Assembly: GCA_907164885.2 (NCBI GenBank)
Contig: OU015497.1
Location: forward strand, 68,269,214-68,333,213
From: Dolomedes plantarius
Lineage: Eukaryota; Arthropoda; Arachnida; Araneae; Dolomedidae
Direction of reading: 5' to 3'
Length of the DNA stretch: 64,000 nucleotides
Part shown: positions 3,601-50,302 of the stretch, in pieces
Numbering within the stretch: the stretch's first letter is position 1
Layout: each line of letters opens with the position of its first letter
The notes under the pieces: model-generated
The model's database searches: none
The model's input: only the letters and a program-made list of their open reading frames with translations
Told to the model about the DNA's origin: nothing
Made by a program: the position numbers and the translations under genes

Positions 3601-3766
3601 CCTACATTTTGCAATGAATTCGCCTGGATGACGTGGAAGGCACGTGATCAGATGGAAGTGGTATTTAACTGCTGCTGGAGAGTCTGAAGAATCATTCTTT
3701 CACTTACTTCTGTGTGTGATGTGAAAGGCTGCGGAACTAAGCGACTTTGATAGAGGGCAGATTGTA

Positions 3767-4759
3767 ATGGCTCGAAGGCTCGGAACAAGTATTTCCGAAA
3801 CTGCACGACTCGTGGGTTGTTCGCGACCTACAGTTGTTAGTACTTATGCAAAGTGGATGAATGACGGTGAAACCAGCAGTAGACGACATGGTGTTGGACG
3901 TCCACACGCTATCAAAGAAAAAGGTCGTCGGAGACTGTCTCGCATGGTGAAGCAAAACCGGAGCCAGACAGTGGCTCAGCTGACAGCCCAGTACAATACA
4001 GGGCCAAGTAGAATAGTATCGCAGCACACTGTTCAGTGGACACTGTTGGATATGGGGCTACGCAGCAAACGTCCCACTCGTGTGCCTTTGCTGACCAAGC
4101 GTCATCGCCAACTGCGCCTGCGCTGGGCCCGGGAACATCGCGACTTGTCCATGGATCAGTGGGAGAGAGTTGCCTGGTCAGATGAATCACGGTTTGTCAT
4201 TCATCACGCCGGTGGCCGTGCCAGGGTACGCCGTCATCAAGGCGAACTGTTGCTCCCTCAATGTACAGGAGGTCATACACAGACCGGTGGTGGCGGTATT
4301 ATGCTTTGGGGGACGTTCTCTTGGGCGTCTCTGGGACCCGTGGTTGTGGTAGAGCAGACCATGAATGCTACAGGGTATCTGAACATCATTGCGGACCAGT
4401 TGCACCCTTACATGGCCTCTGTTTTTTCAGCTGGAAATGAAATGTTCCAACAGGACAACGCCCCGTGTCACAAGGCTAAAATTGTGTTGGAGTGGTTCCA
4501 GGAACATGATGTTGAATTCCAGTTAATGTCCTGGCCGCCTAACTCACCGGATCTGAATCTGATAGAACACATTTGGTATGTCATGGGACGGCAGCTCAGA
4601 GTTCAAAGACCACCAATTCGCAATATCTCGGATTTACGCGACCGCTGCTTAAACATCTGGTACAATCTGTCTCCGGCCATCTACCAAGGACTTGTGGCAT
4701 CCATGCCAAGGCGGGTTGAAGCTGTGTTGAGCGCCAAAGGTGGGCCAACTCGTTATTGA
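3767..4759 (+). CDS. Tc1/mariner transposase (DD36E), start region damaged
   Basis: DDE transposase for cut-and-paste transposition into TA sites. 330 residues from the ATG at 3767. An N-terminal helix-turn-helix (ISETARLVGCSRPTV, residues ~8-22) is followed by a second DNA-binding region with GRP (~46). Catalytic residues visible: D139 (WSDESRF), D230 (QQDNAPCH) and E267 (LNLIEHIW), i.e. 36 residues between D2 and E. An upstream in-frame ATG at 3719 is followed at once by TGA (3722-3724), and the 14 codons after it (AELSDFDRGQIV...) are open. Related proteins as I remember them start at that upstream ATG, so this copy probably lost its normal start by a CGA-to-TGA change. Translation from 3767 would lack part of the first DNA-binding helix. 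The downstream frame is unbroken. Confidence 0.93.
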   Translation: MARRLGTSISETARLVGCSRPTVVSTYAKWMNDGETSSRRHGVGRPHAIKEKGRRRLSRMVKQNRSQTVAQLTAQYNTGPSRIVSQHTVQWTLLDMGLRSKRPTRVPLLTKRHRQLRLRWAREHRDLSMDQWERVAWSDESRFVIHHAGGRARVRRHQGELLLPQCTGGHTQTGGGGIMLWGTFSWASLGPVVVVEQTMNATGYLNIIADQLHPYMASVFSAGNEMFQQDNAPCHKAKIVLEWFQEHDVEFQLMSWPPNSPDLNLIEHIWYVMGRQLRVQRPPIRNISDLRDRCLNIWYNLSPAIYQGLVASMPRRVEAVLSAKGGPTRY

Positions 4760-6048: not shown

Positions 6049-7704
6049 TTTCTGTTACAGCTTTCAATCAATGTCTGTCTCAAAATACCGATACAAGCAT
6101 TATCCTTGTCTAGAGCCGATGTTGCTAACATTGTCTATCAATAAATACCTACTTTCACATAAAACTGTTCAACATTTTTTTTTGCTGTAATATTTTATGT
6201 TTTACTTTTTTGTTGGTAATAACCTACGTTGGACAATATATGTTTTCAAAGAGATGAAATTTCATAAAAAGGATTTTATATAAAACGTTTCTTTTATATA
6301 AATTTCATTATCTTACTTTACTGATTTATGTGTTTTTCAGATATTTCTAAAAGGGTTATATGTTAGTAAATATGTATCATTAATTTTATATCTATGTCAT
6401 TACTAGTACAGATGCAAAAATATTTTTAATATCTTCCTTCATGTGATAGGTTTTTTAATTTTCCACTTGCACAGACCGTAGCATGAAGAACGATTTTCAA
6501 AGGACCTTATGTTAAACTGAATTTGCACTACGCTTAAAATAAAAAAATAAACAAAATCTGCTGCTGTGCCCCTTACAGTAGAACAAGCTTGTCGGAGAAT
6601 TAGCTTCTAGGAATAAAACCACTTGGTAGTTGTAAGGAAACGGGTTTTAAATGATCTCCAATTCAAATAATGTAACAACTAACAATATAACAATCTAACA
6701 ATATAGCAATCTGATGCGCAAATAACATGGAATATCCATATGAGAATAATTTCGCTAGGGAAAATACGAAGACCAAGGAAGGCTACAGCTGAATAAATTA
6801 TTGGAACTATCAATATCTGGCTATTGCATAGCCATATTAATAAAATTACATAGTTAATCCGTATACTTGTAAACGCATAGTATACTTTACTATTTTTAAA
6901 TCGATATACAAATAAGTGCGTGTATGTGTATATGTATGTATGTAGTATCATATGCCTTGAGGTTCTAAACTTAATGCTATTATTTTTTTGAGGAATAAAT
7001 AATATTTATTTCGATATTTTACTTATAGAACAGACGATCCGCCTCACTGTCTAAACCTTAAATGCCCCTTATATCTGCTTGAAAAATCTACAGTAAAGGA
7101 ATTTCAAACGCAAAGTCATAAAACAGAATCGTGCTTCGTGTATCAAGTGCACTTAAACTGACTAAAAGACACATGATAGCGAGGTGTGTTTGACTTTTTT
7201 TTATTATTTGTTAATATTTTAGATTTTTGGACAGTTTTCGACTATTTTGCACTCTTTTTAGGTCTCGCTAAGTTTCTTAGTGAAATATTTAAAATGTAAG
7301 AGTTACGCAAGACAATCTCTGTGATTTGGAAACATGTCGTGCTTTTTTTCTAACTTAGCTGTGTATGAAAATAAATTACATGGAAAATATTACTTCCTGT
7401 TACATAAAAATATACAAAAAAATATGATTAAAAGTCATTTTTCACATGGGAACAGACTTTAAGGACATCTGAAAACTGTTTAGGCAAATAAATGTCAAAA
7501 AAAGTAAACGTATCTGCTTTGAAATCACACACATCTGCTGGTCTGCATAACTTCTTTACTCGAAGTCTGTTATAAGGTTTGATGAATATTATCAAAGTAA
7601 CTACACTAGAGAAAAAGCATAAACTTTAATTCCCTTTAAATAAAATATAATTCATATGTCAATAGTTATCTCAGATAAGAAAGCCTTACACACACACACG
7701 CGCG
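6049..7704. other. AT-rich DNA, nothing recognised
   Basis: No family, repeat or convincing gene. Short GTAT/TATG simple repeats lie at about 6905-6950 and a CA/CG dinucleotide run at 7690-7704. Confidence 0.4.
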
Positions 7705-11113: not shown

Positions 11114-11185
11114 CACGATCGGGTAAATTCGAAAGTTAAGATTTAAATAAGGTGAGTGAGAAATTATTAATCTGCATGCATTACT

Positions 11186-13357
11186 ATGGCTGAGTTAGAT
11201 AAAATCCGCAAGAAAAGAAGCACAGTTAGAGCTTTAACTACGAAGTTGATTTCAAAAATTGAACTTGTTTTCTATGATGAAAAAATTGAAACTAATATTA
11301 AACTAGAAGAATTGAAGGATTTAAATGAGCAATTGTTAGAAAAGTGTGATCAGTTAAAAGCTCTAGATGCTCAGATAGAGAATTTAATTGGTTCTAATGA
11401 AATCGAAAATGAAATAATTGGTATTGAAGAATATTCGGAGAAAATAATTAAATGGAAAGGTAAAATAACTAGGCTAATAAAAGAGCACGTAAAAAGTGTA
11501 TCAGATGTTTCAGTCGATTTATCGCCAAATTCTCGCCAAGAATTATCACATAATAATGAGTTAAAAAGAAAAGTTATAAGTTTACCTAAACTTACAATTC
11601 CAAAATTTAATGGAGATCCAAGTTCTTGGATTGAATTTTGGCAGAAATTTAAAAATGCGATTCATGAAAATGATAACTTAAGTAAGACAGAGAAATTCTC
11701 ATATTTAAAAATGTTATTAGAAGGAGTTGCGTTAAACGCTATAAAAGGTTTTTCGCTTACAGAAGAAAATTACATTAAGAGCATCAATTTACTAACTGAC
11801 CGATTTGGTCGCGATTTTATCGTTATAAATAGTCACATGACAAACTTGTTAAATTTACATCCTGTAAAAAGCTCGACCAATATTAAAGCATTCAGACGGC
11901 TATTTCATGATTTAGAAATAAATGTGAGATCACTTGAAAGTTTAAACGTAGCCGCAGGAACATATGGCCAGTTATTATGTCCAATTTTGCTCAAACTGAT
12001 TCCAGATGATATAAGTTTAGAATACAACAGACAAAGGAAATCTAATACAGAATTTGATGTTCTTGAATTAATGCAATTTTTAAAACGAGAAATTGAGTGT
12101 AGAGAGTCGTCTATCTTATTAACCCAAACCGAAAGACAACCAAAACAAGTAATTTCGAGTAAATTTGACAAGGGTCCTAATTATAAATACTTCAATCCTA
12201 AAAATAATCCAACTGTTGCGTTTGCCTCTAATGTGAAACAAAATTGTGTATTTTGTTACCAAAATCATGAATCATTGAATTGCAACACTGTCCCTTCAGA
12301 AGAGAAACGAAACAAATTAAGAAAAGAAGGACGATGCTTCAAATGTTTTAAACGTTCACATTTGAGTATTCATTGTAGAAGTAGAATTAAAGATTGCTCG
12401 ATTTGCAAAGGTAAAAATCATCACGAAATCATTTGTTTTAAAACTCAAAAACCATATGATGAAATACCTAATTCAGCGCCGGAATGTCAAACAGTAATAT
12501 CTAGTATCGCGAATTCTGAGGGAAAATGTAGTGATTCCATAATTTTGCCTACATGTGCTGTTGAAGTTCAAGGCCCATCAAAATCAAAGATAACCGCAGT
12601 GTTATTTGACAGCGCTTCTTCAAAATCATTTATAACGAAGACATGTGCGCGAGAATTAAAGCTCCCTATTTTAAGAGTAGAGCATTTATTAGTTTACACT
12701 TTCGGTTCTCGTGAACCCATAAACAAGACATACCACGTAACAGAAATTGAGTTGAATCACTTGAATAATCCTGAAAGAAAAATAAAACTTGAAGTGTATG
12801 TAACGGACACAATTTCTCATGTGTCTATGGTGACGTCAGCCAGTGCGGTTGAACATTTGCTAAAAGAGTTCAAAATTCCTCTCCAACAGTTTAAACAAGC
12901 AAAAGGGCGGAGAGTTGAAATACTGATTGGAGCCGATGTGTTCTGGAAATTGCAGACTGGACACATAAGGAAAATATCAAAAGGATTGTTTTGCATTGAA
13001 ACGTTATTAGGATTCATTATATCGGGTGTACGAGAAAATGGTAAACAAACCAGATCATTCGTGAATTTATGCCTGACAGAAGGGGAAACACTGAGTAATG
13101 TTGTAAACAATCCAGATTCTTTTGGTGATGATTTAAACACTCAATTAAAAAGATTTTGGGAATTAGAGTCGTTAGGTATTAATTCCAACGGTAATGACAA
13201 TAATCATACTTCAGCTGATGTTGAAACTTTAAAGGGATTTGAGCAAAATATTAAAGTCATAGTAAACGGAAAATATGAAGTTAAACTGCCATTCAAAGAC
13301 AAAATAGACTTATCGGACAATTTTTCGCATTCCAAAGAAGGTTATCAAAATTGTTAA
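11186..13357 (+). CDS. gag: BEL A gag and protease (first part of Gag-Pol)
   Basis: 723 residues from the ATG at 11186. A basic, coiled N-terminus is followed by a DUF1759-type capsid region (KLTIPKFNGDPSSWIEFWQK, ~residue 135). Three CCHC-like knuckles follow (CVFCYQNHESLNC ~354, then CFKCFKRSHLSIHC and CSICKGKNHHEIIC). A DUF1758-type aspartic protease has DSAS (VLFDSASSKSFI, ~475) and ILIGADVFW. In the BEL family gag and pol form one frame. Here the frame ends at 13357 because it slips in a five-T run at about 13321. The pol frame overlaps and is open from at least 13321. One missing base (real or an assembly error in a homopolymer) explains it. Confidence 0.92.
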   Translation: MAELDKIRKKRSTVRALTTKLISKIELVFYDEKIETNIKLEELKDLNEQLLEKCDQLKALDAQIENLIGSNEIENEIIGIEEYSEKIIKWKGKITRLIKEHVKSVSDVSVDLSPNSRQELSHNNELKRKVISLPKLTIPKFNGDPSSWIEFWQKFKNAIHENDNLSKTEKFSYLKMLLEGVALNAIKGFSLTEENYIKSINLLTDRFGRDFIVINSHMTNLLNLHPVKSSTNIKAFRRLFHDLEINVRSLESLNVAAGTYGQLLCPILLKLIPDDISLEYNRQRKSNTEFDVLELMQFLKREIECRESSILLTQTERQPKQVISSKFDKGPNYKYFNPKNNPTVAFASNVKQNCVFCYQNHESLNCNTVPSEEKRNKLRKEGRCFKCFKRSHLSIHCRSRIKDCSICKGKNHHEIICFKTQKPYDEIPNSAPECQTVISSIANSEGKCSDSIILPTCAVEVQGPSKSKITAVLFDSASSKSFITKTCARELKLPILRVEHLLVYTFGSREPINKTYHVTEIELNHLNNPERKIKLEVYVTDTISHVSMVTSASAVEHLLKEFKIPLQQFKQAKGRRVEILIGADVFWKLQTGHIRKISKGLFCIETLLGFIISGVRENGKQTRSFVNLCLTEGETLSNVVNNPDSFGDDLNTQLKRFWELESLGINSNGNDNNHTSADVETLKGFEQNIKVIVNGKYEVKLPFKDKIDLSDNFSHSKEGYQNC

Positions 13358-16281
13358 CTCGTTTGGACAATGAACCATCATTATATGAAGAGTACAAATT
13401 AGTTTTTGCAGATCAAATTAATTCTGATGTTATCGAACCTGTAAATGAGAACTTTGAACAGTCATCCAATCTTGTATATTACATGCCTCATCATACTGTT
13501 ATTAGACGTGATAAAGAGACCACAAAATTTCGTATTGTTTTTGATGCGTCCGCGAAGGATAGAAATTGTTTATCTTTAAATGATAATTTGCTTGCAGGCC
13601 CAAACTTGAATCCGAATTTACTAATTCTTCTTTTGAAATTTAGAGAACATAAAATCGGTGTAATAGCCGACATAGAAAAGGCTTTCCTTCAAATTTCTCT
13701 TTCGGCTGAAGACAGGGACTGTCAAAGATTCTTATGGGTCGATAATTTACAAAACAAAGATCTAAAATGTTTTCGTTATAAAACTGTAACATTTGGATTG
13801 AAATCATCAACTTACCTTTTGGCTGCTACCATAAAGCATCATCTTAAAAATTATGAATTCTCTTATCCCACGGCTTTTAAGGCATTAAATGAATCATTGT
13901 ATGTCGATGATTTTATATGTGGCTCGAGAACTGTAAATGAAGCTCTAAGTTTATCGAAGGATGCTAAATTTATTTTAAGCGATGCTAAAATGAATCTTCG
14001 AAAATGGAAGAGTAATTCTAAAGAGCTTTGTAATATTTGGAATGAAACTAAGTTTGAAGAACTTCAAAAGGAACATCTGATCCCTATTAAGGTTTTAGGT
14101 ATAATCTGGAATGTTGAAACTGATGATTTTAAATTAGATTTATCACCATTGTTAGAAGCTCTCAAAGAATCAAAAAATACTAAGAGAAGTGTGTTAAAAT
14201 TGTCTTGCAAATTGTTTGATCCTATTGGGTTTATAACTGCTTTTACTATTCGTATAAAAATTTTGCTGCAAGAAATATGGGAGAGAGGTCAAGACTGGGA
14301 TGAAGAATTACAAGAAGAATTGAGAAATAAATGGAACAAATGGTGCTTAGAAATCCCCATTCTAGAAAAATTATCTGTTCCAAGATGGTATTTCCTCAAA
14401 GAAGACGATGGCGATGTACCAGAATTTCAGGTGCACGTCTTCTGTGACGCGAGCGAAGTTGCGTATGGAGCAGTTTCATACCTTCGATTTAGAAACCAGG
14501 GAGGTAGCTTTGAGGTTACTTTCGTAGCTGCTAAATCTAGAGTAGCTCCAGTAAAGAAATTAAGCCTCCCTAGACTTGAATTGATGGCAACATTAATTGG
14601 AGCCAGATTGTTGCATTTCCTGAAGGAAGTATTTCACATTAGAAGTAATTATACTTTGTGGTCTGATTCCACAATAGCATTACATTGGGTGAAGGGAAAT
14701 GCTAAGCAATGGAAACCCTTTGTATGTAATCGCGTTAGTGAAATTCAAGGTTTGACTGAACCATCAAACTGGAAACACTGCAGCGGAAAGGATAATCCGG
14801 CAGATATGCTCTCAAGAGGATGTTTAGCGGAAGACTTGCTGAATGGGGAAAAATGGTGGAAAGGGCCAAAATGGCTAATCTTCCCAATGGAACAGTGGCC
14901 GAACAATGGAGATAAATTTATTTGTGAAGATAATGTTGAAAAAGAAAAACGATTAAAACAATCAGCCATTTTTAACAGTATAACTTCAGAAGGAAAAGAA
15001 AATCCAGAAAGGATCCTGGATTTGAAGAAATATAGTTCTATTCAAAGGGTATATCGAATAACTGCTTGGGTGAAAAGGTTTACAGAAAATTCAAAATTCA
15101 AAGATAAGGAAATGCGAATGACTTCAGAATTAACCGCAGAAGAAATTTTGGATGCTAAGAGACTGTGGATTAGAAATATTCAAGCGGAATGTTTTCCTGT
15201 GGAATTTAAATGTTTGAAAGAAGGAAATCCCATTCCCAAGAACTCCAGTATTCGTGATTTGAATCCGTGTCTAGATAACACAGGAATAATGGTAGTCGGT
15301 GGGAGACTACAAAATTCTAAATTTGAATTCAGAGAAAGGCATCCATGGTTAATCCCTAGCAACAGTAGACTAACCGAATTGATAGTAATGTCAGCACATA
15401 ATCAAGTAATGCATTTAGGAGTAGCAAGTACATTGTCTAAAGTTAGAGAGACCTTTTGGATACCACGAGGTAGACAAATAGTTAAAACTTTCATAAGCCG
15501 CTGTATGATATGCCGAAAATTTACTGCTAAAGCAGGTCAACAAATTACTGCTCCTCTACCATCTGACAGAGTAACTGAGTCTCCACCCTTTGCTGTGAGC
15601 GGTTTAGATTTCGCAGGTCCCCTTTACATTAAGGTGAAAAATTCTGCAGTGACTTCAAAGTGTTATATTCTACTGTGCACATGTGCAGTAACTCGAGCAG
15701 TGCATCTAGAACTAGTGCAAGACCTGAGTACTGAGTCATTTTTACTAGCCTTTCGACGATTCGTCGCTAGAAGAGGTCTTTGTAGTGTAGTATTCACTGA
15801 CAATGCCCAAACATTCAAGCGAGCTGAGAAAGAACTTGGATTGTTGTGGAATACAATTAGCCATAATGACGTAAAGACATTCTACAGTTCTAAAAGAATA
15901 GAATGGAAATATATTGTTCCAAGAGCTGCCTGGTGGGGCGGCTTTTGGGAGCGAATGGTGAAAACAGTCAAATCATGTCTGCGAAAGGTCCTCGGAAAAT
16001 CATGTTTGACGTCAGATGAGCTAGAAACCATTCTAGTTGAAATCGAAGCTGTAATCAACTGTAGACCCATTAGCTACTTGTACAGTAAGCCTAATGAACC
16101 TTCATGTTTAACACCAGCCCATTTTTTGACTGGAGAACGTGCAACTTCCCTACCACAAAATATTCCTGTTATCCTAGATAAATCGTCATCCAGTGAGCAT
16201 TCAATAAGAAGTATTATAATCGACAAAGACTCCTGGATCATTTTTGGCGAAGGTGGAAAAGGGAGTACATGCTGGACTTAA
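13351..16281 (+). CDS. pol: BEL A pol: reverse transcriptase, RNase H, integrase
   Basis: About 976 residues. Not a separate gene: the in-frame sequence continues upstream and has no ATG, so it is the displaced rest of Gag-Pol. RT: FRIVFDASAKD, then VIADIEKAFLQI, and YVDD intact at residues ~184-187. RNase H: FCDASEVAYGAVSY, SLPRLELMATL, LWSDSTIALHWVKG and DNPADMLSRG. Integrase: an H/C zinc region before CRKF, then D753 (GLDFAGPLY), D817 (FTDNAQTF) and E867 (FWERMVK). All active-site residues I could check are present. The frame drifts out near 16235 and the C-terminus continues in another frame at 16269. Confidence 0.93.
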   Translation: MLTRLDNEPSLYEEYKLVFADQINSDVIEPVNENFEQSSNLVYYMPHHTVIRRDKETTKFRIVFDASAKDRNCLSLNDNLLAGPNLNPNLLILLLKFREHKIGVIADIEKAFLQISLSAEDRDCQRFLWVDNLQNKDLKCFRYKTVTFGLKSSTYLLAATIKHHLKNYEFSYPTAFKALNESLYVDDFICGSRTVNEALSLSKDAKFILSDAKMNLRKWKSNSKELCNIWNETKFEELQKEHLIPIKVLGIIWNVETDDFKLDLSPLLEALKESKNTKRSVLKLSCKLFDPIGFITAFTIRIKILLQEIWERGQDWDEELQEELRNKWNKWCLEIPILEKLSVPRWYFLKEDDGDVPEFQVHVFCDASEVAYGAVSYLRFRNQGGSFEVTFVAAKSRVAPVKKLSLPRLELMATLIGARLLHFLKEVFHIRSNYTLWSDSTIALHWVKGNAKQWKPFVCNRVSEIQGLTEPSNWKHCSGKDNPADMLSRGCLAEDLLNGEKWWKGPKWLIFPMEQWPNNGDKFICEDNVEKEKRLKQSAIFNSITSEGKENPERILDLKKYSSIQRVYRITAWVKRFTENSKFKDKEMRMTSELTAEEILDAKRLWIRNIQAECFPVEFKCLKEGNPIPKNSSIRDLNPCLDNTGIMVVGGRLQNSKFEFRERHPWLIPSNSRLTELIVMSAHNQVMHLGVASTLSKVRETFWIPRGRQIVKTFISRCMICRKFTAKAGQQITAPLPSDRVTESPPFAVSGLDFAGPLYIKVKNSAVTSKCYILLCTCAVTRAVHLELVQDLSTESFLLAFRRFVARRGLCSVVFTDNAQTFKRAEKELGLLWNTISHNDVKTFYSSKRIEWKYIVPRAAWWGGFWERMVKTVKSCLRKVLGKSCLTSDELETILVEIEAVINCRPISYLYSKPNEPSCLTPAHFLTGERATSLPQNIPVILDKSSSSEHSIRSIIIDKDSWIIFGEGGKGSTCWT

Positions 16282-16508
16282 GATCTCTTCATTCTGAGAA
16301 GCGTAAGAGCTGTACCTCAACCTTTAAAGAAAACGACTTGGTTTTAATCCATGATGAGCGTGTTCCAAGAACTGTCTGGAAAATTGGACGTGTAATAAAG
16401 ACGATTCCTGGCAGAGACGGAAAAATAAGATCGTGTAACATCAAAACTTCTAATGGAACACTTAAACGTCCAATCCAACTCTTATATAATTTAGAAATAG
16501 CTGACTAA
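16269..16508 (+). CDS. pol: BEL A pol C-terminus (DUF5641-like), frame-displaced
   Basis: About 79 residues: ENDLVLIHDERVPRTVWKIG, then GRDGKIRSCNIKTSNG and PIQLLYNLEI. This matches the small beta-rich domain that closes BEL/Pao integrases. It overlaps the previous frame by a few codons. The tryptophan-rich lead-in (FWRRW-type) is readable in this frame from about 16238, so a single-base slip lies just upstream. The apparent ATG at 16269 is internal. Confidence 0.85.
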   Translation: MLDLRSLHSEKRKSCTSTFKENDLVLIHDERVPRTVWKIGRVIKTIPGRDGKIRSCNIKTSNGTLKRPIQLLYNLEIAD

Positions 16509-22105: not shown

Positions 22106-22274
22106 TACTTATTCAGAAATCAAGTATGCTCTTACGAAAGGGGGCCCGTAAAGGCTTCAGTAGTACTACCCATTTCTTTACTACACCTTTATGTGGCCGT
22201 TGACCTCTTATCAACAACTCCTTATCTACCTATATCGTTAATTCTGGAGCCCGGATACTCTTCTCTTTAATTTA

Positions 22275-22482
22275 GGTGTATCCAGTCTCAAACGGATATC
22301 TCCAATCGAAAAAAAAATTCAACTGACACACTTCTAAGACCACACCAAACAAAACCCCTTTGTTGACATAAGATTTTAATTTAGGTGTATCCAGTCTCAA
22401 ACGGATATCTCCAATCGAAAAAAATGTCAACTGACACACTTCTAAGACCACACCAAACAAAACCCCTTTGTTGACATGAACG
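22275..22482. repeat. Two-copy tandem duplication, 108-bp period
   Basis: The unit starting AGGTGTATCCAGTCTCAAAC at 22275 repeats at 22383 nearly perfectly through CAAAACCCCTTTGTTGACAT. The copies differ by one or two bases in the A-run, so the duplication is recent. Confidence 0.92.
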
Positions 22483-33030: not shown

Positions 33031-33073
33031 AGGTTAGATTAATATTCATGGTCGCTTTATGCGTATAAGAATC

Positions 33074-34120
33074 AGGTCCATGTCGCTGGCCCGGCACTTT
33101 TGGAATTTCGAGTTGAAACTTTCACAAAAATTAGTACCTAATTAGTACCAATTAGTACCAAAATTTTAGAATTCGTACCCATCAGGATCGCGAGTTATAG
33201 CGTGTCCGATTCTACCGGGCCAGAGACATGGTAGCTCGGCACTTTTGGAAATTCGAGTTGAAACTTTCACAAAAATTAGTACCTAATTAGTACCAATTAG
33301 TACCAAAATATTAGAATTAGTACCCATCAGGATCACGAGTTGTAGCGTGTACGATTCTGCCGGGCTACCATGTCGCTGGCCGGGCACTTTTGGAATTTCG
33401 AGTTGAAATTTTCACAAAAATTAGTACCCAATTAGTACCAATTAGTACCAAAATATTAGAATTAGTACCCATTAGGATCACGAGTTATAGCGTATTCGAT
33501 TCTTCCGGGCCAGCGACAATCATGTCGCTTCCGAGCCAGACGTTTTGGAATTTCGAGTTGAAACTTTCACAAAAATTAGTACCTAAGTAGTACTAATTAG
33601 TACCAAAATATTAGAATTAGTACCCATCAGGATCGCGAGTTTTATCGTGTCCGATTCTGCCGGGCCAGCGACATGGTAGCCCGGCACTTTTGGAATTTCG
33701 AGTTGAAACTTTCACAAAAATTTGTACCCAATTAGTACCAATTAGTACCCATCAGAATAACGAGTTATAGCGTATTCGAATGTGCCGGGCCAGTAAAAAT
33801 CATGTCGATCCAAGGCCAGACGCTTCGGAATTTCAAGTTGAAACTTTCACAAAAATTATTACCCAATTTGTACTAATTATTCCCAAAATATTAGAAATAG
33901 TACCCATCAGGATCGCGAGTTATAGCGTGTCCGAACCTGCCGAGTTACCATGTCGCTGGCCCGGCATTTTTGGAATTTCGAGTTGAAATTTTCAAAAAAA
34001 TTAGTACCAAATTAGTACCAATTAGTACCAAAATATTAGAATTAGTACCCGTGAGGATCACGAGTTGTAGCGTATTCGATACTGCCGGGCCAGCTACAAT
34101 CATGTCGCTTCTAAGCCGGA
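33074..34120 (+). repeat. Left tandem array, ~7 x ~145 bp
   Basis: The anchor GGAATTTCGAGTTGAAA recurs at about 33102, 33247, 33392, 33546, 33692, 33827 and 33970. Each unit also contains short ATTAGTACC-type subrepeats, CCCATCAGGATC and GAGTTATAGCGT. Two unit flavours are seen, one with GGCCCGGCACTTTTGG and one with GAGCCAGACGTTTTGG. Unit lengths 135-154 bp. Confidence 0.93.
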
Positions 34121-34124
34121 GGCT

Positions 34125-34235
34125 ACAATTTCGCTTGCTGAGTGTATGCAACTCACAGCAAACGAATGGCGTAATGGAGTCAAAGATCTTTTAAACCTCG
34201 AAGTAGTATTTAACAGTGAAAGACACAAAGACAAG
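34125..34235 (+). CDS. Exon-like open block, unknown gene
   Basis: Open for ~37 codons (ISLAECMQLTANEWRNGVKD, then LLNLEVVFNSERHKDK) and ending at a consensus donor GTAAGT (34236). Its start lies at the inner edge of the left tandem array, with no clean acceptor. Peptide composition looks like real protein, but I do not recognise the family. It could be an exon of a gene carried by the element, or of the host gene it landed in. Confidence 0.3.
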
Positions 34236-35523
34236 GTAAGTTAATTTTATTTCACATTGGTTTTAATGAATGTTTCCTATAGGCATGCCAATTAGATGCG
34301 AGTCACTTTTATAAAACAATTTGTACAAAATTAATCATTATCACACCACTATATATTGATATAACTCGTATATTAATTTTTCAGAAATTTGGGAATAGGG
34401 ATCTAATTTATTAGGAATCGTTTATTAACTTTTTGAAATCGTTAATTAATTTATTTGCTTTCAGATTGAACAGTGAAAAACCGGTGGCGTTGGTGAGCCT
34501 TATCTAGAAAGAGAAATAGCCCTAAAGCCCCAAAATTGTAGGTAAAATGTCTTAGCAGTTTGAACCCCTTTGCAACAAAATTTTAATACTGCAATTGAAA
34601 AATAACTTTTTCATATATTTAATTTAATTCACTTTAATATTAACCTTAAACCGTTTATAATACTGTTTCGCACCGTGGAATTGAATTACTATAAAATAAA
34701 ATCGACTATTTTTATTTTGATAGAGATTTTACAAATAAATTTATTAGAAATCTCTTGATGATTTGTTCATCAACATTATCAGCCTGCCTTGATTACATTT
34801 AATAAAGATTTAAAGCTTGTCTCCAGGTCCTTTACAATAACTGGCGCATAACAGCCCATTAACTTTTAATTCGGATTCTTGCAACTATTTAAAGGTGGAT
34901 TATAATTTCAAAGCTGTATTATTAATTTAATAACAAATTTTTTAAATTGAAGTTTCTGCAACTATGTTTAAGCGACTTTTAACTAGAGATTATTTCTAAA
35001 CATCTGATAACCGAGTTAGCAGGCGTTAGACTATCCTTTCCTCATTTAATTCATAGTAATAATTAGTAATAATAATCGTAAATTTAAAGGTAGTACGATT
35101 GTATTTTCAGTTCTATATCTTACAGGATCAAGGAGAAAAAATTACCCAGACAGCTTCTTGCTGTTATAATAAAAAAAAATAATATTTATATTTTATATTG
35201 ATATTTTTTGAAACATAGAGTGCGTTTTAGATTCAATACATTTTTTAGTTTTTCTGGTGGTGTAATCTTAAAATAACACTACCCACATAAATTTAAACTG
35301 CCCATTGAAAAAGAAATCGTAAATTTCCAATAGATGTTCAGATGAGATGAAAAATGTTGTTTGCACTTGGTAGTACAAAATGCGCAGTTTAGTTCATCCT
35401 TTTATTTACAGCTGTGGAGGGATGAGAGGTATAAATTCCAAACTATTTGGCGACCATTTATGACCCAAGGCGAATTTCCAGATCAGTGTTCTTGTTGTAC
35501 TTATGACGTGAAAGTGGTAAAAG
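34236..35523. other. Intron-like AT-rich DNA
   Basis: No feature beyond the donor at its start and a possible acceptor TTTACAG at about 35404-35410. Confidence 0.35.
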
Positions 35524-35805
35524 ATGAAGCGTGCTGGTAGAAAGAGTAAAGTTTGTCCCGAAGTGCTATTGGAACTGATTTCAGAAAGAAAATCGCGATT
35601 ATTCGTAAAAGATGTTTTAGTTGCGTCCACTGATATTGTTTTCAATTAAATCAGAGAAAAAAATGGTGGAATTTGACTTCAAAAGCGGTTTATTTGTTTA
35701 TTAAGAAAAACAAACTAGCTAGACAAAAGTTGCAAGAATGGGGATTGTTGAAAGAGACTGAAAAGTGTGATGACGTTGAGAATCCTCGTCTATCGCCTGT
35801 ATCAG
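35524..35805 (+). pseudogene. Exon-like fragment of an unknown protein, one frame break
   Basis: From ATG 35524: RAGRKSKVCPEVLLELISER, then KSRLFVKDVLVASTDIVFN and TAA at about 35647. In a shifted frame the sequence continues NLTSKAVYLFIKKNKLARQ, KLQEWGLLKETEKCDDVEN and reaches a donor GTAAG at 35806. The second half has the look of a helical domain (S-x-x-A-L-Y-x-x-x-K-x-N-R) I have seen in arthropod repeat-associated proteins but cannot name. Together with 34125-34235 it suggests a spliced gene in the core, now broken. Confidence 0.3.
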
Positions 35806-36332
35806 GTAAGCTCTTTTATATCTTATAGTAGAAATATTATTAATTTTTTAAAATAGTTTTATTATTTATAACCCATTACTGTTTTTTTATTCTTTCGGAA
35901 ATTTGTCTTAATTTGTTAACGTACGACTGTTCTCTTCTAAATATACGATAGCCAAAACTTTATTATACGTAGCTCGCAAATTGTTTTATAATGCTTATTT
36001 TCTCGAGTCTGCAAATTCGTTCCTCGATCGCTCTCGGTTTATCGAGAAAAAAAATCTCAAAACCTGAAAATTGCATTAATGGAGTAAACGAGAACAGATT
36101 GACTTGAAATGTGAAACACATATATTTAGCGCATCAAATATTTGCTGTTATGTGTTTGACGCTGAAGAGATATTTCAGTAAGTTGTTGATTTACTAAAAC
36201 TCCTCACCCGCAGGATATATATTGGTAAGTGTTTTATAATGTTCAGTATTTCCGTATGCTAAGACAGAAAATCCTTTATTGTTGTTTCTACTGGAAACTA
36301 ATTGGTGAATATATGTTAATTATTTCATTTAC
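35806..36332. other. No recognised feature
   Basis: AT-rich, intron-like sequence after the GTAAG donor. Confidence 0.35.
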
Positions 36333-36360
36333 ATACAGAGCCACAGCTGTGGCTCTGTAT
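36333..36360. repeat. Perfect 28-bp palindrome
   Basis: ATACAGAGCCACAG immediately followed by its reverse complement, no spacer. Confidence 0.9.
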
Positions 36361-36406
36361 AATAAGGCCCTTATATTTTTTTAATTTGAGAATTCATCAT
36401 ATAGGG

Positions 36407-36717
36407 CAGTGGTCCCCAACCCCCGGACCGGTAAAGGTCAGTGGATCAAATAGTACCGGGCCGCCCAAGGAAATTAAATTATTTCCATTTAATTTACTGT
36501 GGTGTATTTCTCTCGGGTTAGTGCGACTTTGTCGGGTTTGTGCTAATTTATACCTTTGTAACAAAAGAAATCTTGTAACTATTTTAAATTAGTTTATTGT
36601 TTATTAAACATTACAAGATTATGAATTAAAATTGCAGTCATAGCCCCCGTCAGCGGGCCGCGGTAAAATTGTCAAACGTTGAACGGTCCGCGGCGATTAA
36701 AAGGTTGGGGATCACTG
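36407..36717. mobile_element. hAT MITE (311 bp) with 8-bp TSD
   Basis: The ends CAGTGGTCCCCAACC and GGTTGGGGATCACTG are inverted repeats, and ATATAGGG duplicates the target on both sides (36399-36406 and 36718-36725). GGGCCGC/GCGGACC-type subterminal motifs flank the inside. The CAGTGGTxCCCAACC end is typical of hAT. No coding capacity. Confidence 0.95.
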
Positions 36718-36725
36718 ATATAGGG

Positions 36726-37103
36726 TATTTCATTTTAAAGTGCATAATATGAATGCGCACAATAGGCGCATTTACTTGTTTATGCATTTACTTCCGTTTT
36801 CGAAATGGAATCCCAACACATTCCATCGCAGTGCGACTCTATGTCTGCTGAGTTTTTTAAAATTTTGTTCTGTTTATTGCGGTTAACTTCAGATTTTCTC
36901 TTTTGATGAATCATTTGCGAAAAATGGCATTAGTTTTTTCTTTGAAACATTGAAATTGGAAAAGAGTAAAAATACGATACTGCAATCATCAGAAATTAAG
37001 ATATAATAAACATAGTCTGAACTTTTTGCAATTTTATATGGTTTTAATTTTGTTACATATGTCGCCGGAGTCAGAATGAATTCTACACTACTCTTTGATG
37101 GGG
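36726..37103. other. No recognised feature
   Basis: AT-rich remainder of the core up to the inner edge of the right array. Confidence 0.35.
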
Positions 37104-38130
37104 CTTGTCGCTGGCCCGGAAGAATCGAACACGCTATAACTCGCGATCCTGATGGATATTAATTCTAATATTTGGGTATTAATTAGTACTAATTAGGTAC
37201 TAATTTTTATGAAAGTTTCATCTCGAAATTCCAAAGCGTCTGGCTCGGAATCCACATGATTGTCGCTGGCCCTGAAGAATCAAATACGCTGATCCTGATG
37301 GGTACTAATTCTAATATTTTGGTACTAATTGGTACTAATTGAGTACAAAGTTTTGTGAAAGTTTCAACTCGAAATTCCAAAAGTGCCGGGCCAGCGACAT
37401 GGTAGCCCGCAGAATCGGACACGCTATAACTCGTGATCCTGATGGGTACTAATTCTAATATATTTGTACTAATTAGTACTAATTAGGTACTAATTTGTGT
37501 GAAAGTTTCAACTCGAAATTCCAAAGCGTCTGGCTCGGAAGCGACATGATTGTCGCTGGCCCTGAAGAATCAAATACGCTATAACTCGTGATCCTGATGG
37601 GTACTAATTCTAATATTTTTGTACTAATTGGTACTAATTAGGTACTAATTTTTGTGAAAGTTTCAACAAGAAATTCCAAAAGTGCCGGGCTACCATGTTG
37701 CTGGCCCGGCAGAATCGGACACGCTATAACTCGTGATCCTGATGGGTACTAATTCTAATATATTTGTACTAATTAGTACTAATTAGGTACTAATTTGTGT
37801 GAAAGTTTCAACTCGAAATTCCAAAGCGTCTGGCTCGGAAGCGACATGATTGTCGCTGGCCCTGAAGAATCAAATACGCTATAACTCGTGATCCTGATGG
37901 GTACTAATTCTAATATTTTTGTACTAATTGGTACTAATTAGGTACTAATTTTTGTGAAAGTTTCATCAAGAAATTCCAAAAGTGCCGGGCTACCATGTTG
38001 CTGGCCCGGCAGAATCGGACACGCTATAACTCGCGATCCTGATGGGTACTAATTAGTACTAATTAGGTACTAATTTTTGTGAAAGTTTCAACTCGAAATT
38101 CCAAAAGTGCCGGGCCAGCGACATGGACCT
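37104..38130 (-). repeat. Right tandem array, inverted, with 300-bp dimer
   Basis: The same ~145-bp repeat in opposite orientation, about 7 copies. The two unit flavours alternate, and 37561-37860 and 37861-38020 match almost perfectly at a 300-bp offset, i.e. a higher-order dimer amplified recently. The right arm is more uniform than the left. Confidence 0.93.
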
Positions 38131-39519
38131 AGAATAATTGCATATGGTGGACATCAACAGAGAGAGTGACAGGAGACGATGACACTTAGCGACGACAGCA
38201 GGAAAACCCAGAACTTTGCACGTAGACAGTTGAGAGATGTCTTCCTTTCAGACATATATGCAAATAGACGTATCCATTTGTTCCAACTGTCTAATACGGT
38301 AATTAATAACCATTTCCTTTTTTTCATTTATCTCTTTCCTGAAGCACAATGTATTGCATTCTGTAAAGAATTTACATAGAACGTATTTTCTTCATACTGG
38401 TGTTTACGTCCTATTCAAAATTTATTCTCTTTCTTCTCATACTCACAAGAGCATATCAATAAATTTTCATTTCAATAGAAAGTGTATATTTGCAAAAAAT
38501 TCATTTCCGCAGATATTTAGAAGAAAGTCATTGAGTGTGAAAACAGGTAACCTATATGTGATACACAAAGAAAAAAACAGATACTCAAATTTCATTTCCA
38601 CATCTTTATTTTCAAGAGAAAACAACTTCATAAAACAAAAGACGAATGTAAAGTAATTAATTAAGATTTTTTTTACGAAAATACCATTTTGTTTCCTCAT
38701 AAAGTTTCTACCTTTCTTTTTTAAACGTCGTAAATCATTCATTTGTTAAACATTTGCTCTGCAGGAATTTTACTATATTTTTCTTTGAGTTTCACTTTGT
38801 CTCGCCATTCCTTTATTTTTCTCGTTTTATTTTGATGAAATACGTTTCCCAACTGATAGGATCTTTATTAATATTGAAGAAGAAAATCCTCTTGAAAAAG
38901 TATTCTTAGAATAACGAAACATAGTGACTCCAAACACGCAACATTACAAATTTGTAGATAAAGCAATTTTTTTCGATGAAAACTATATTTGTATTAGGTT
39001 GCTTCTGAAAAGTAAATATTTTGAAATTTCGAGTAAAAGAAGAAACTACATTTCTTTGGAAATATTCAGAAGAAAGCTGAAAATACATTTTTGAAATGTT
39101 AAAGTACATCTTTCATTTATTGATTTATATTATTTTTAATTCTACCTTGTAATAAACAAATAAGTAATTTTTTATGTGAGAAAAGAAGGAAGCAGAGGTT
39201 TATACTGCAATCGTTAATGCTTGGCAAAATCTGTCGCAATTCCGAAAGGATTTTAGAAAAAAGAAAACTGCGAGAAAGAATTCAGACATCTGTGGCATAA
39301 ATACTTCTCAGAATACATTAAAATAAAATTCTTAAAGGGAATCTGCTTTAGTGACTGACAGTGTGTTAAATTTTAAGAAATTTTGGAAAACATTTTAACA
39401 TGAAATTATTACATTAGGAATTTTATATAATATCATTACATTAGGAAATATTATTACATTAGTAAATTTATATAGTAACAGTCAATTATTTTTTAATAAT
39501 ACATGTCGTATATGAACAT
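38131..39519. other. No recognised feature
   Basis: AT-rich DNA. Short open frames at 38179-38379 and 38354-38742 overlap on both strands and match nothing known. Confidence 0.35.
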
Positions 39520-44835: not shown

Positions 44836-46509
44836 ATGGATAAGCTATCTAAGCTTAAAAAGAATAGAGCTGTTAGACGTTCTGTTGTTACACAGTTCAT
44901 TAATAAACTAGAAAGTGAATTTGACACATATGATATTAATTCATTGCAAGAACATTCAAATTATTTAGAAGAGCTCTACAAAGAGCTAAAGGATTTTGAT
45001 AATAAAGTTCAGAATATTATTGATAATGAAAAAGATTTCGATTTAGAAGTAGAATCATCATTTGAATATTCTCAGAAAATCATGTTGTGGAATTAAAAAA
45101 TTTCCGCTCAGTTAAAAGCTCAAAACGAAACCAGAAATTCCAAGTCAAATTTCACCCAACAGAATATTTCTGCACAAACCTCTCAGGTTATGTTAGATCA
45201 CGATAACTCATTGGATAACTCGAATTCTGGAAATAGAAATATTAATTACTCAAAGTCGATTAAATTACCTAAGTTAGCTATCGACAAATATTACGGATAT
45301 CCATGCACCTGGCTGGAATTCTGGAACCAATTCCAAAACTCTATTAATCAAAATAATGCTTTGACGGAAATAGATAAATTCTCATATTTAAAATCATTAC
45401 TTGGAGGTGCGGCGACCAATGTTGTTTGCGGCTTCTCACTTTCAGATGAGAATTATGAAAAAGTGAAAACGCTATTAAAGAACAGATTCGCGAAGTCAAA
45501 TCTTTTAATATCAGCACATATATCTAGATTATTAAACCTTAATCCTGTGAAGGACTCTAACAATGTAACCGGACAGAGAAAATTGTACGATACTTGTGAG
45601 GTACAGATCAGAAGTCTAGAATCGCTAAATGTTACTTCTGGTATGTACGGACATTTATTACAACCCATACTTTTAAAATTGATACCTGAGGATCTTGATT
45701 TATATTTTAATAGAAGATGTTTAGATAAATCAGAAGACGGCGAATCCAACGTGTCAGAATTATTGAAATTCTTAAAAATTAAAACTGAGTGTCGCGAATC
45801 ATCGATAATGCTTCGTAGTTCGAAAGGAGAAGAGGGGAGAGTGTCAAACCACAGCCAGACAAACTCGGGAAGTGCTGGCGTCAGGTCGAAGCAGTTTTCG
45901 AGAGATAGTCAAAACAATTTACGCGATAAACAACATGATCGCTACCGAACGTCAGCGATAAATAGTTCTAAGGTACACGAATATATGTTGCCAATTAGTC
46001 AAACTTGCATTTACTGCAATGCGAAACATGATTCAGAACGCTGTGAAAGTTTGAGTGTGAATGAAAAGAAAGATGTTTTGAGAAGACAGGTGGGTTGTTT
46101 TTTATGCCTGAAAGCACAACATAGAATTAAAGAGTGCAAAAAAAGAGAATTGTGCGATCTTTGTAATAGAAAACATAACAGATCCATTTGTTATCAACTC
46201 GAAAACAAATCAAATAGTAATGCTGAAAATAAGGTTGTTACGGCAATTTCTCACTACAAAAATGAATCGGAAAATACCAAACTAAACGGACATTCTCAGT
46301 GCAGTGTATTGCTTCAAACATGCACAGCAATGATAAGGGAAACCCTGAACGATGATAAAATCGAACATGTTCGCCTGTTGTTGGATAATGGCTCGATGAG
46401 AAGTTTTATCGCTCAAGATATTTCTCAGAAGTTGAAACTACGAGTTATTAGACAAGAAACTTTATCTGTGTACTCATTCGGGACCAACAAACCAACTGAA
46501 AAAACATAA
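44836..46509 (+). pseudogene. gag: BEL C gag-protease, interrupted
   Basis: ATG 44836: a coiled N-terminus (KLSKLKKNRAVRRSVVTQFI...) stops at TAA 45094 and continues in the same frame from 45100. DUF1759 region at ~45265 (IKLPKLAIDKYYGYPCTWLE). Three knuckles: CIYCNAKHDSERC, CFLCLKAQHRIKEC, CDLCNRKHNRSIC. The protease has LLLDNGSMRSFI, with DNG where DSG/DTG is usual. The frame is lost at a six-A run at about 46497-46503 and picked up one frame over. Otherwise well preserved. Confidence 0.88.
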
Positions 46510-49500
46510 TGTAGTCAAATTAAAACTTGAAAACAGAGAAGAACCTTCCTTATATATCGAAATAGAAGTGCTAGAAACGGAGCAAATATCCGCAACTAAT
46601 ATTCCTGCTCCAGAGATTAATTTGTATAGAGCTAAAAAACAGATGAGGGGATTACAGCTTGTAGACTGCTATAATTACGGGAATAAGAAAATTGAGATTT
46701 TAATCGGTGCTGATTATTATTTTGATGTAGTATCAGGAAGACTCAAACGTTTAGGTGATAAGATTGTAGCCACAGAAATAATTTTCGGATGGTGTCTTCA
46801 AGGTCGGATTGAATCAACTAACGAGTTACTGAGTATGAAGGTGGTTGTGGAAGAGAAACTTATCTCAGGTCAGCTAAGACAGTTTTGGGAACTGGAGAAT
46901 CTAGGCGTCGAAGCTGAAGACAAAGATAGTAGTAATTTCGACGAACAAATTATGAAAGACTTTGAGGCAGGTATATCCTACAATAACAAGAGATATAAGG
47001 TGCGACTTCCTTGGAAACCTGAGATGAAGCAATTATTAGAAGATAATCGAGAAGTTGCTAATAAAAGATTTTCAAGACTACGATGTACTTTCCAGAATGA
47101 TCCAATATTATTCACAGAATACAAGGCTGTTTTAGAAGACTACTTAAGTGAAAATATCATAGAGCCTGTTCCTGTTTTAGATGAAGCCAGAGAAGCCCCA
47201 ACCTTCTACTTCCCACACAGGGCAGTGATTCGAACAGACAAAACCACAAGTAGATTAAGAGTGGTGTTTGACGCTTCTTCACATGGCAAAGGACAGGTAT
47301 CCTTAAATGACTGTCTGCATACTGGAAACAATTTGTTACCCGATCTTTTCCTTCTTTTAATTCGATTTAGACAACACCCTGTTGCGCTGACTGCGGACAT
47401 TAAGCAGGCGTTCATGCAAATAGAGATAGATGAAGAAGATCGCGACGTGGCCCGATTCCTTTGGGACGATAACCCTACTAAACCTAACTCAGTTCCAGAG
47501 CTCAAGGAGTTCAGACTCTGTAGAGTCTTGTTTGGGGTGAGTCCACCACCATTCCTCCTGGCTGCAACCATTAAGTATCACCTAAAGAGGTATGTAGAAA
47601 GCTGTCCTGAAATTTATAAAATTGTAAATTCATCTTTGTATGTATACGACTTGATCACTGGTGGAGAAAATGTAGAACAAGCCTATAATACGAGTATACA
47701 GAGTACTAAAATATTTGAGGATGCAAGCATGGTTCTACTTAAATGGCAGACCAATTCGTTAGAGTTACGTGAACTGTGGAAGAAAGTAGGGATAGATGTA
47801 AATGAATCCGTTGAGCCTAACACTCAAGCTCTGTTACCTCAAAGGGTGCTAGGAGTGGCTTGGAATGCCAACGATGACTTGTTTTATTTCGAAACAAAAA
47901 TTTTTGAGAAATTCCTTTCAGAGCGAGTAAGCACCAAACGATACCTTCTACAAGAAATAGGTCGCATTTTTGATCCCGTGGGATTCCTCGGACCTTATAT
48001 AGTTAGAATTAAGTGTCTAATTCAAGAGATTTGGTGTTTGGGACTGGATTGGGATGATTATCTCCCTAAGAATATAACCGTTATTTGGGATGAATGATGT
48101 AATGAAATCGAAAAGCTGAGGGATATCAGTCTTCTTCGGTATTGTTTCGCTAATGCCCTTCCTAAGGAAATAAATGATATACAAGTACATTGTTTTTCAG
48201 ACGCTTCGAAGAAAGCTTAAAGCGTCGTCGTTTATCTACATATAACACGCAGTGATGGAAGTATTTTTACTAGTTTTGTGGCGTCGAAGAGCAGAGTTGC
48301 TCCACTAAAAGCAATTTCGCTACCCCGTCTTGAATTAATGGGTGCTCTTCTTTCTGCTAGGTTATGTTATAAAATTGCAAAGGGCTTAGAATATTCATTT
48401 GAGCGTTATTTTTGGACAGATTCGTCTATAGCTTACTTTTGGATAAAGAATGCGTCCGACAGGTTTAAACCATTTGTAAAAAACAGGGTACAAGAGATTC
48501 AGCAATATACCAATCCTAGTGAATAGTTCCACTGTCCTGGAAAGGACAACCCGTCAGATTTGATATCTAGAGGATTAACTGTCGCTGAATTAAAAGATAA
48601 TAAATTATGGTGGAACGGACATGAATGGTTGGTTCACGATAATGAGAAATGGCCCAGATTTGAAGGATCAAAAAAGGGATTAGACACCGAAAAACTTGAA
48701 ATTCGAAAAGGAGCTTTAATGAATGCAACAGTAGTAGATAGTGTAACGACAAATGATTTAATTAACAAATACTCTTCATTCAGCAAATTAGTTAGAGTCA
48801 CCGTTTGGTGCTTAAGATTTTCTAAAAATTGTAGACTTGAACCTGAGTTAAGAAACAAAGCCTTTTTGAGTACTTCCGAAATTCAAAATTCAACCAAGAT
48901 ATTGGTTAAATATGTTCAACGTTCCGAATTTCATTCCGAAATTAAATATTTACAATCAAATCGCCAAATCCCAAACAATAGTAAAATTCTCTCATTAAAC
49001 GTATTCCTAGACAAATAAGGACATTTGCGAGTTGGTGGACGATTAAGCAATTCAAAACTTTCAGAATTCTGGAAATACCAATTACTTTTACCCAAAGCTC
49101 ACCACTTTACTGAATTATTGATAGATTACTACCACAAAAAATCTCTTCATTCGGGTACTCAAACAACCCTGTACCTTATTAGACAAATGTATTGGATACC
49201 TTCTGGACAGGATAGAATCAAACGAGTTATTAGTAAATGTATGACTTGTTTCCGAACAAGAAATCAAACCATGAAGCAAATGATGGGTAACCTACCAAGA
49301 GATAGAGTTATACCGTCTCGACCATTTGAAAAGATAGGACTGGATTTCGCTGGCCCAATACTTACTAAAGCTAATTTGAGACGATCTAAAGTGACTATGA
49401 AATCATATATCGCAATATTTATTTGTTTCAGTACGAAAGCTGTTCATTTTGAAATCGTATCCGATTTAAGCACTGAAGCCTTTCTTGCAAGTCTTAGGCG

Positions 49501-50302
49501 ATTTATCGCAAGACGATCAAGACCAACTACCATCTGGAGTGACAATGCTACAAATTTCAAGGGCGCTAAAGACATCTTAGATTCCTGGTTTAAAATATGC
49601 AAATCGGAATCTGTACAAAAATTCAGTGCCGAAGAAAGCATAGAGTGGAACTTTATACCACCTGCATCGCCACATTTTGGTGGATTATGGGAAGCTAATA
49701 TAAAATCAATGAAGAAACACTTGGTGAAGACTGCGAAAACAAAGATTCTAAATTTTGAAGAGTTGTACACGCTCGTAACTCAAATAGAAGCCTGCCTAAA
49801 TTCCCGCCCATTATCTCCTCTTACTGCAGATCCAACAGATCTTCAAGCCTTGACTCCAGGACATTTCCTGATAGGTGCCTCCCTATTACAGTTACCAGAA
49901 ACTAATCATACTTCAGATAATCTGTCTTTATCTTCCAGATGGACCCTAATACAAGACCTAAGATCTACATTTTGGAACAGATGGACAAACGAATATCTTA
50001 ATCGTTTGAACGAATATCTTAATCACCTGCAATCTCGAGCCAAATGGGCTACACAAGAACCCAACCATAAGGTAGGACAGTTAGTTTTAATGAAAGACCC
50101 AAGCAAAATTCCAATGGAATGGAATCTAGCACGCATCGAGCAAACGTTTACTGGTCAAGATGGACTAGTTAGAGTGGTGGACCTGAGAACGAGAAACGGG
50201 GTTTACCGCCGTGCCATCAACAGGGTCGTCCCACTCCCCTTTCCAGATGATGTTGGACCACCGTCCAACGGGGGCCGGGATGTTCCGACTAGAACTATTT
50301 GA
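46510..50302 (+). pseudogene. pol: BEL C pol: RT, RNase H, integrase, five breaks
   Basis: One frame throughout with stops at 48095, 48218, 48524 and 49016. ILIGADYYF (~46700) closes the protease. RT: LRVVFDASSHG, LTADIKQAFMQIEIDEEDRD; the YVDD box reads YVYD because the first catalytic aspartate is TAC (47645-47647). RNase H: FSDASKKA-stop, SLPRLELMGALLSARL, WTDSSIAYFWIK. Integrase (49025 on): a zinc region with CMTCFRTRN, GLDFAGPIL, WSDNATNFKGA, FGGLWEANIK (D, D, E intact). C-terminal DUF5641-like VGQLVLMKDPSKIPMEWNLA. The frame runs into the 3' LTR. Confidence 0.9.

What the first reader, a model, noticed from the sequence alone, without database searches (positions are those of the whole stretch)
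33074..38130. Foldback-like 5-kb unit with arms made of tandem satellite repeats
Two ~1.05-kb arrays of the same ~145-bp repeat face each other in opposite orientation. Their outer edges are exact inverses (AGGTCCATGTCGC.. and ..GCGACATGGACCT), and AGAAT lies just outside both. Arms composed of tandem subrepeats are the signature of Foldback-type elements in Drosophila. If this is one mobile element, it is a chelicerate-type Foldback or a new inverted-repeat DNA element with its own core.
Basis: partly seen in the sequence, partly recalled or inferred. Interest (0 to 1): 0.8.

Follow-up and report, generated by a model that had tools for sequence, protein, structure and literature searches.

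The report
Foldback transposon with satellite-repeat arms
The two facing repeat arrays are the ends of a jumping-DNA family of the Foldback type, found in many places in this genome, whose repeated arms look like rows of docking sites for the enzyme that moves it; the copy in this window is an old, shortened one.

Summary
Two arrays of ~145-155-bp units (33074-34124; 37105-38130) face each other; their outer 45 bp are exact inverses. In the same 2.78-Gb genome the 24-bp edge occurs 351 times (reversed control 0). Among 100 listed edges, 26 of 29 neighbours within 60 kb face each other, 0.6-52 kb apart. Of 32 known pairs, 31 were tested for 9-bp target duplications: 23 perfect, 4 at 8/9, 1 at 7/9, 2 at 6/9 (one is this window), 1 at 2/9. 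Empty sites exist for a 14.7- and an 18.2-kb copy. The arms counted carry TTAGTACC 16-37 times each, always one way; a sister family with different arm units keeps this 8-mer, my candidate transposase-binding site. Large copies hold parts of a DDE-type transposase gene; a MULE/NOF origin is likely, not proven. The window copy is an old internal deletion or recombinant: its arms are only 85% alike, and AGAAT is at best the remnant of a decayed 9-bp duplication. One of nine long copies carries a block of Polinton-like capsid genes; whether it moves with them is open. A new family of a known kind.

The parts
33065..33073 (.). left 9-bp flank ATAAGAATC, candidate left target duplication (decayed)
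   Evidence: 6 of 9 positions match the right flank (flanks, counted by hand); mispaired flanks reach 6 or more of 9 in 3.5% of 380 comparisons
33074..34124 (+). left arm: tandem array of ~145-155-bp units starting AGGTCCATGTCGC; 20 TTAGTACC sites, all in one direction
34125..34211 (+). arm/core junction conserved with one end of the long family copies (72-82%)
34212..35633 (.). left part of the core; no convincing match in the family copies fetched (one weak ~68% match near 34899-34999); the big copies have a 1.3-kb end of a sister transposon at the corresponding place
   Evidence: the genome search for this stretch did not complete
35634..37104 (.). family core found in pieces in six long copies (the last 349 bp in four), 93-95% identical except one 86% piece, without the Tc1 (site 36123/36124) and the hAT-type insertion (site 36756-36763) present there
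36407..36717 (.). nested hAT-type MITE, CAGTGGTCCCC...GGGATCACTG, 8-bp flanks ATATAGGG; inside a segment shared with the large copies
   Evidence: read; the shared segment covers it; the hAT label is recalled from end motifs
37105..38130 (-). right arm: inverted tandem array ending GCGACATGGACCT; 16 TTAGTACC sites
   Evidence: 93.4-95.5% to 17 of the 18 arms of the nine long copies, 89.4% to the other, 84.6% to its own left arm
38131..38139 (.). right 9-bp flank AGAATAATT; AGAATA could be a right duplication that lost its first three bases
   Evidence: inference

Best explanation
The unit is a decayed, internally deleted member of a family of Foldback-type DNA transposons. Shown: elements have two inverted arms made of ~145-bp tandem units with a fixed outer edge (AGGTCC...GGACCT); elements of 0.6-31 kb are flanked by 9-bp target duplications; long members carry parts of one transposase gene; arms differ in length and cores differ by large insertions and deletions. 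Inferred: a DDE transposase, acting in trans on defective copies, docks on the many TTAGTACC sites in each arm, pairs the two ends, cuts at AGGTCC and joins with a 9-bp stagger. The repeated sites let the enzyme recognise ends that lie tens of kilobases apart. Copies like the window's arise when the middle of a large element is deleted.
For: Edge count 351 against control 0. Converging order in 26 of 29 listed neighbours within 60 kb, but 4 of 64 beyond 60 kb. 9-bp duplications: 9 of 9 long pairs perfect; of 20 further pairs 14 perfect, 4 at 8/9, 1 at 7/9, 1 at 6/9, while mispaired flanks reach 7 or more in 0.6% of 380 comparisons. Empty sites: a Tc1 paralogue with a single TGATTTAGA for the C1 copy; a nearby duplicate with a single GCAGAAATA for the C9 copy. 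Arm lengths 894-1,628 bp. Transposase: a 695-aa frame in 14-kb copies matches a 919-aa protein over 98% of its length at 35% identity; relatives align with conserved DATG, a second D, DxAH and VESSFN or similar; a separate N-terminal exon in a big copy matches the N-terminus of the sister transposase (39% over 118 aa). TTAGTACC is the only strongly repeated 8-mer shared by the arms of two families (32 and 13 copies; next best 8 and 5), with 0 of its core in reverse orientation.
Against: The window copy has no clean duplication (6 of 9) and its arms are only 84.6% alike, so it may be a recombinant. The C6 0.98-kb pair has 2 of 9 (flanks). Residues 1-240 of the transposase, with the first two catalytic D, were found in none of the loci held; the one locus whose DNA is 96-97% like the family and has that part carries two stops. 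Pfam's MULE model gives only E 0.16 in 1 of 9 members. Structure predictions failed (pLDDT 30 and 40). Binding of TTAGTACC is untested; its sharing by two families may only reflect common descent of the units, and within the window's 14 units it is barely more conserved than the rest (0.913 against 0.865).
Confidence: 0.9

Rival explanations
1. The window unit is a recombinant: its two halves come from two different insertions of the family joined by ectopic exchange or deletion, so it never moved as this 5-kb unit.
For: Own arms 84.6% alike, while nine long copies have 92.9-99.3%; no exact duplication; the left 1.4 kb of the core has no convincing match in the fetched copies while the right part matches at 93-95%.
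Against: 6 of 9 flank positions match, and AGAAT on both sides fits a decayed duplication with a 3-bp loss; six or more matches occur in 3.5% of mispaired flanks.
Confidence: 0.4
2. A simple satellite array split by a segmental inversion, no transposon.
For: The units are satellite-like.
Against: Fixed outer edge in 351 places, converging pairs, 9-bp duplications and empty sites.
Confidence: 0.02
3. A Polinton/Maverick provirus with repetitive ends.
For: AG...CT ends, 13-31 kb size, and capsid, protease and packaging-ATPase genes in one copy.
Against: 9-bp, not 6-bp, duplications in all nine long copies. Judged from the frames listed, 1 of the 9 long copies has such genes (12 kb of the C2 copy were not read). 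In that copy blastn found no inverted ends around the block, and Pfam recognised no polymerase or integrase in 9 of its 15 frames of 110 aa or more (the other six were not scanned).
Confidence: 0.03
4. A P-superfamily Foldback like Galileo rather than a MULE/NOF-type one.
For: Galileo also has arms with tandem repeats holding several transposase sites (PMC3688188, passages).
Against: 9-bp duplications; no THAP or P-type domain in the Pfam scans.
Confidence: 0.05

Closest known systems
Tm1 Mutator/Foldback family of root-knot nematodes (PMC3169594, passages)
   Same: Composite arms with tandem motifs, mostly 9-bp duplications, coding and non-coding copy groups
   Different: Tm1 units are ~14 bp and its transposase has FLYWCH and MULE domains; here units are ~145 bp, tested copies reach 31 kb, and the transposase has a SCAND3-like zinc finger and only a marginal MULE match
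Drosophila FB / FB-NOF (recalled)
   Same: Long arms of tandem subrepeats, variable middles, 9-bp duplication (recalled)
   Different: The NOF protein was not at hand for comparison; not tested
Tetris, Foldback of D. virilis (PMC4079207, passages)
   Same: TIR-220 tandem repeats in the arms, 8-10-bp duplications, source of satellite DNA
   Different: No coding copy of Tetris was found by its authors; here transposase-bearing relatives lie in the same genome
Galileo (PMC3688188, passages)
   Same: Repeated transposase-binding sites inside long arms; the first by footprinting, further ones by sequence
   Different: P-type transposase with THAP domain; no such domain found here

Membership tests
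Foldback elements | long inverted arms built of tandem subrepeats with a fixed outer edge | tested here: met
Foldback elements | constant-length target duplication (9 bp) | tested here: met
   family: 23 of 31 pairs perfect, 28 of 31 at 7/9 or better; the window copy alone has 6/9
Foldback elements | variable arm length and variable middle | tested here: met
   arms 894-1,628 bp; paired edges 0.59-52 kb apart
Mutator/MULE superfamily (Phantom, NOF) | MULE transposase domain (Pfam PF10551) | tested here: inconclusive
   E 0.16 in 1 of 9 members, below the cut-off; none
Mutator/MULE superfamily (Phantom, NOF) | DDE residues plus a His after the second Asp | tested here: inconclusive
   DATG, a second D, DxAH and an E in VESSFN-like context in alignment A4, where the family's own row lacks the first two; no reliable fold
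NOF subgroup | similarity to the Drosophila NOF protein | not tested
   no NOF sequence was at hand
Phantom subgroup | FLYWCH zinc finger | tested here: not met
   no hit, nor in the 829-aa sister frame that includes an N-terminal part; a further upstream exon cannot be excluded
Polinton/Maverick | 6-bp duplication, own polymerase and integrase | tested here: not met
   9-bp duplications; none recognised in the 9 of 15 C9 frames scanned
Galileo / P superfamily | THAP domain | tested here: not met
   no hit; same caveat about upstream exons

The most novel reading that the evidence does not exclude
A Foldback element has swallowed the particle-building half of a Polinton/adintovirus-like virus (double-jelly-roll capsid protein, packaging ATPase, adenovirus-like protease and further open frames) and mobilises it between 9-bp duplications: a Teratorn-like transposon-virus hybrid that uses Foldback ends in place of a viral integrase.
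Probability: 0.15. Interest if true: 0.85.

Novelty: new member of a known kind. Interest (0 to 1): 0.52.

Why it matters
Whether the tandem repeats in Foldback and Phantom arms are transposase docking sites was called untested in 2013 (PMC3688188, passages read). Two families in one genome whose arm units share one strongly repeated, one-directional 8-mer and little else make that directly testable. With transposase genes of both families in the same genome and 351 recognisable ends, the family also allows study of how Foldback arms grow and shrink, how large a load they can carry, and whether they pick up viral genes.

Tried and rejected
Polinton was my first hypothesis, from size and AG...CT ends; the 9-bp duplications in nine of nine long copies removed it. 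AGAAT as the target duplication was rejected; it is kept only as a possible remnant. Structure prediction of the transposase gave pLDDT 30 and 40, so no fold search was made. A protein search with the 474-aa frame found nothing; the 695-aa frame found one relative. In the viral collection the exact outer edge was not found, and no relative of the capsid protein was confirmed (close relatives only, and records near this genome may be left out). NCBIfam gave nothing useful. One known pair (C1, 52 kb) was not tested for duplications. Left open because the genome search did not complete: where else the capsid block occurs, whether its junctions recur, the other end of the sister family, and copies of 34212-35633.
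Full report
OBSERVATION. Tandem arrays lie at 33074-34124 and 37105-38130. Units are ~145-155 bp with a ~300-bp higher order. The arms are inverted; the longest ungapped pair is 434 bp at 92%. Their first 45 bp are identical.

FAMILY. The window lies in a 2.78-Gb genome of 390 contigs; no name is given. A 291-bp edge probe gave 225 matches; 40 of 410 candidates of the first look were scored. The 24-bp edge with up to 2 mismatches occurs 174 times forward and 177 reverse, control 0. The capped list shows 100 edges, all on C1-C7 and all exact. Among these, neighbours within 60 kb have the order +/- in 26, ++ in 2 and -+ in 1; beyond 60 kb +/- is 4 of 64. The distances run from 586 bp to 52 kb.

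INSERTION. Nine pairs of 13-31 kb all have perfect 9-bp duplications, no two alike. Twenty further pairs: 14 perfect, 4 at 8/9, 1 at 7/9, 1 at 6/9. Flanks of different elements, mispaired, reach 8 in 0.3%, 7 in 0.3% and 6 in 2.9% of 380 comparisons. The window pair has 6/9 and the C6 0.98-kb pair 2/9 (flanks, counted by hand). So 31 of 32 known pairs were tested: the 26 plus six of the nine long ones, less the 52-kb pair. Empty sites: the C1 copy sits in a Tc1-like element whose paralogue runs through with a single TGATTTAGA; the C9 copy has a duplicate of its target about 0.7 kb beyond its right end, 97% identical, with a single GCAGAAATA.

ARMS. Arm lengths in the nine long copies are 894-1,628 bp. 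Left and right arms of one copy are 92.9-99.3% alike in these nine and 84.6% in the window (first 880 bp). TTAGTACC occurs 20 and 16 times in the window arms and 28-37 times in the six other arms counted (3 of the 9 long copies), and 13 and 17 times in two arms of a sister family; the core TAGTACC is never reversed there and occurs twice, counting both directions, in the other 59 kb of the window. Within the 14 window units the sites are only a little more conserved than the rest (0.913 against 0.865), which is weak support.

CORES. Of the nine long copies, five were fetched whole in two pieces each, three nearly whole in five pieces each, and C2 without its middle 12 kb. Three 13-14-kb copies (two on C7, one on C3) are 97-99% alike in their shared parts. 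Five copies (C1, two on C8, C12, C2) share another backbone, and C9 shares its outer parts. Pieces of the window core (35634-37104) are found in these six, the last 349 bp in four, at 93-95% except one 86% piece. There they are interrupted by a Tc1-like element at a TA (read in C1) and by an hAT-type insertion with the 8-bp duplication CGCACAAT (read in C2); the window has both sites empty. The window copy thus represents a form without these insertions and lacks everything inward of 37104, including the N-terminal transposase exon (L042:3867-4247).

TRANSPOSASE. A 695-aa frame in two of the three 13-14-kb copies, split by one stop in the third, carries a SCAND3-like zinc finger (E 2e-8) and matches P0024 (919 aa, unnamed source) at 35% over 98%. 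Copies held contain only residues 241-903 of P0024 or parts of them. The exon L042:3867-4247 matches the N-terminus of the sister transposase (39% over 118 aa, E 7e-22). Locus L052 on C9 holds residues 4-278 at 53% with two stops; its DNA is 96-97% like the family. Aligned relatives show DATG, a second D, DxAH and an E in a VESSFN-like context. The Pfam MULE match is marginal. I call it a DDE transposase, probably of the MULE/NOF group (inference).

SISTER FAMILY. Three loci (L049, L050, L051), about 97% alike over 4.7 kb, match P0024 residues 8-603 without stops. In L050 the frame from stop to stop is 829 aa (one search prints 1,082), and its more C-terminal match has a TGA. The gene-side end is again an array of 146-bp units, starting CACGTACATTTCACC. 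Its first 1.2-1.3 kb is embedded beside an arm in the long copies of the window's family. Its arm shares with the C1 arm no strongly repeated 8-mer except TTAGTACC. Its far end and its duplications were not reached.

VIRAL BLOCK. The C9 copy has about 9.1 kb between L036:3485 and L037:3116 where the other backbone copies have the transposase gene and insertions. Frames there match a double-jelly-roll domain (E 6e-14), Pox_A32 ATPase (5e-12), Ulp1 protease (3e-4), adenovirus protease (6e-3, below cut-off), adenovirus protein X (2e-4, below cut-off) and a phage T7 tail-fibre N-terminal domain (3e-12). The capsid protein has 23 relatives, among them Trichonephila clavipes and Araneus ventricosus proteins at 43-58%, and one 98% identical from an unnamed contig. 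Blastn found no inverted ends around the block; its borders look like plain joins. It is in 1 of the 9 long copies. That the block moved with the element is not shown.

VERDICT. I found no report of this family in the library searched: papers holding foldback, transposon, spider and inverted repeat together 0; MULE-NOF with spider 0; adintovirus, Polinton, spider and endogenous 0; foldback, transposon and Polinton 7, none of them on such a hybrid by title and start of abstract. It works like known Foldback elements, with a clear candidate docking site and very large members.

Noticed in passing
L036:3485 to L037:3116 (C9 copy): Block of open virus-like frames (capsid, ATPase, protease, protein-X-like, one with a phage T7 tail-fibre-like match) inside a Foldback copy with a perfect 9-bp duplication.
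   Followed up: partly
L049, L050, L051, L061, L063: Sister transposon family with long transposase frames and its own tandem-repeat end that shares TTAGTACC.
   Followed up: partly
P0001: Capsid protein 98% identical to that of the C9 copy on a 7-kb contig of unnamed origin; source unknown.
   Followed up: no
L028:5604-6655; L032:5132-5578 and 6864-7310: Frames containing FCHSRWLTLANRMLRLYVG without Pfam match, next to a 447-bp inverted duplication in a 14-kb copy.
   Followed up: no
window 36407-36717: hAT-like MITE with 8-bp flanks ATATAGGG nested in the core and shared with large copies.
   Followed up: partly
window 3725-4759: 344-aa frame that looks like a Tc1/mariner transposase (by eye).
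   Followed up: no
window 11171-16508 and 45097-50302: Long frames that look like BEL/Pao-type retroelements (by eye).
   Followed up: no
window 22266-22477: Two copies of a 108-bp unit, 97% matches.
   Followed up: no
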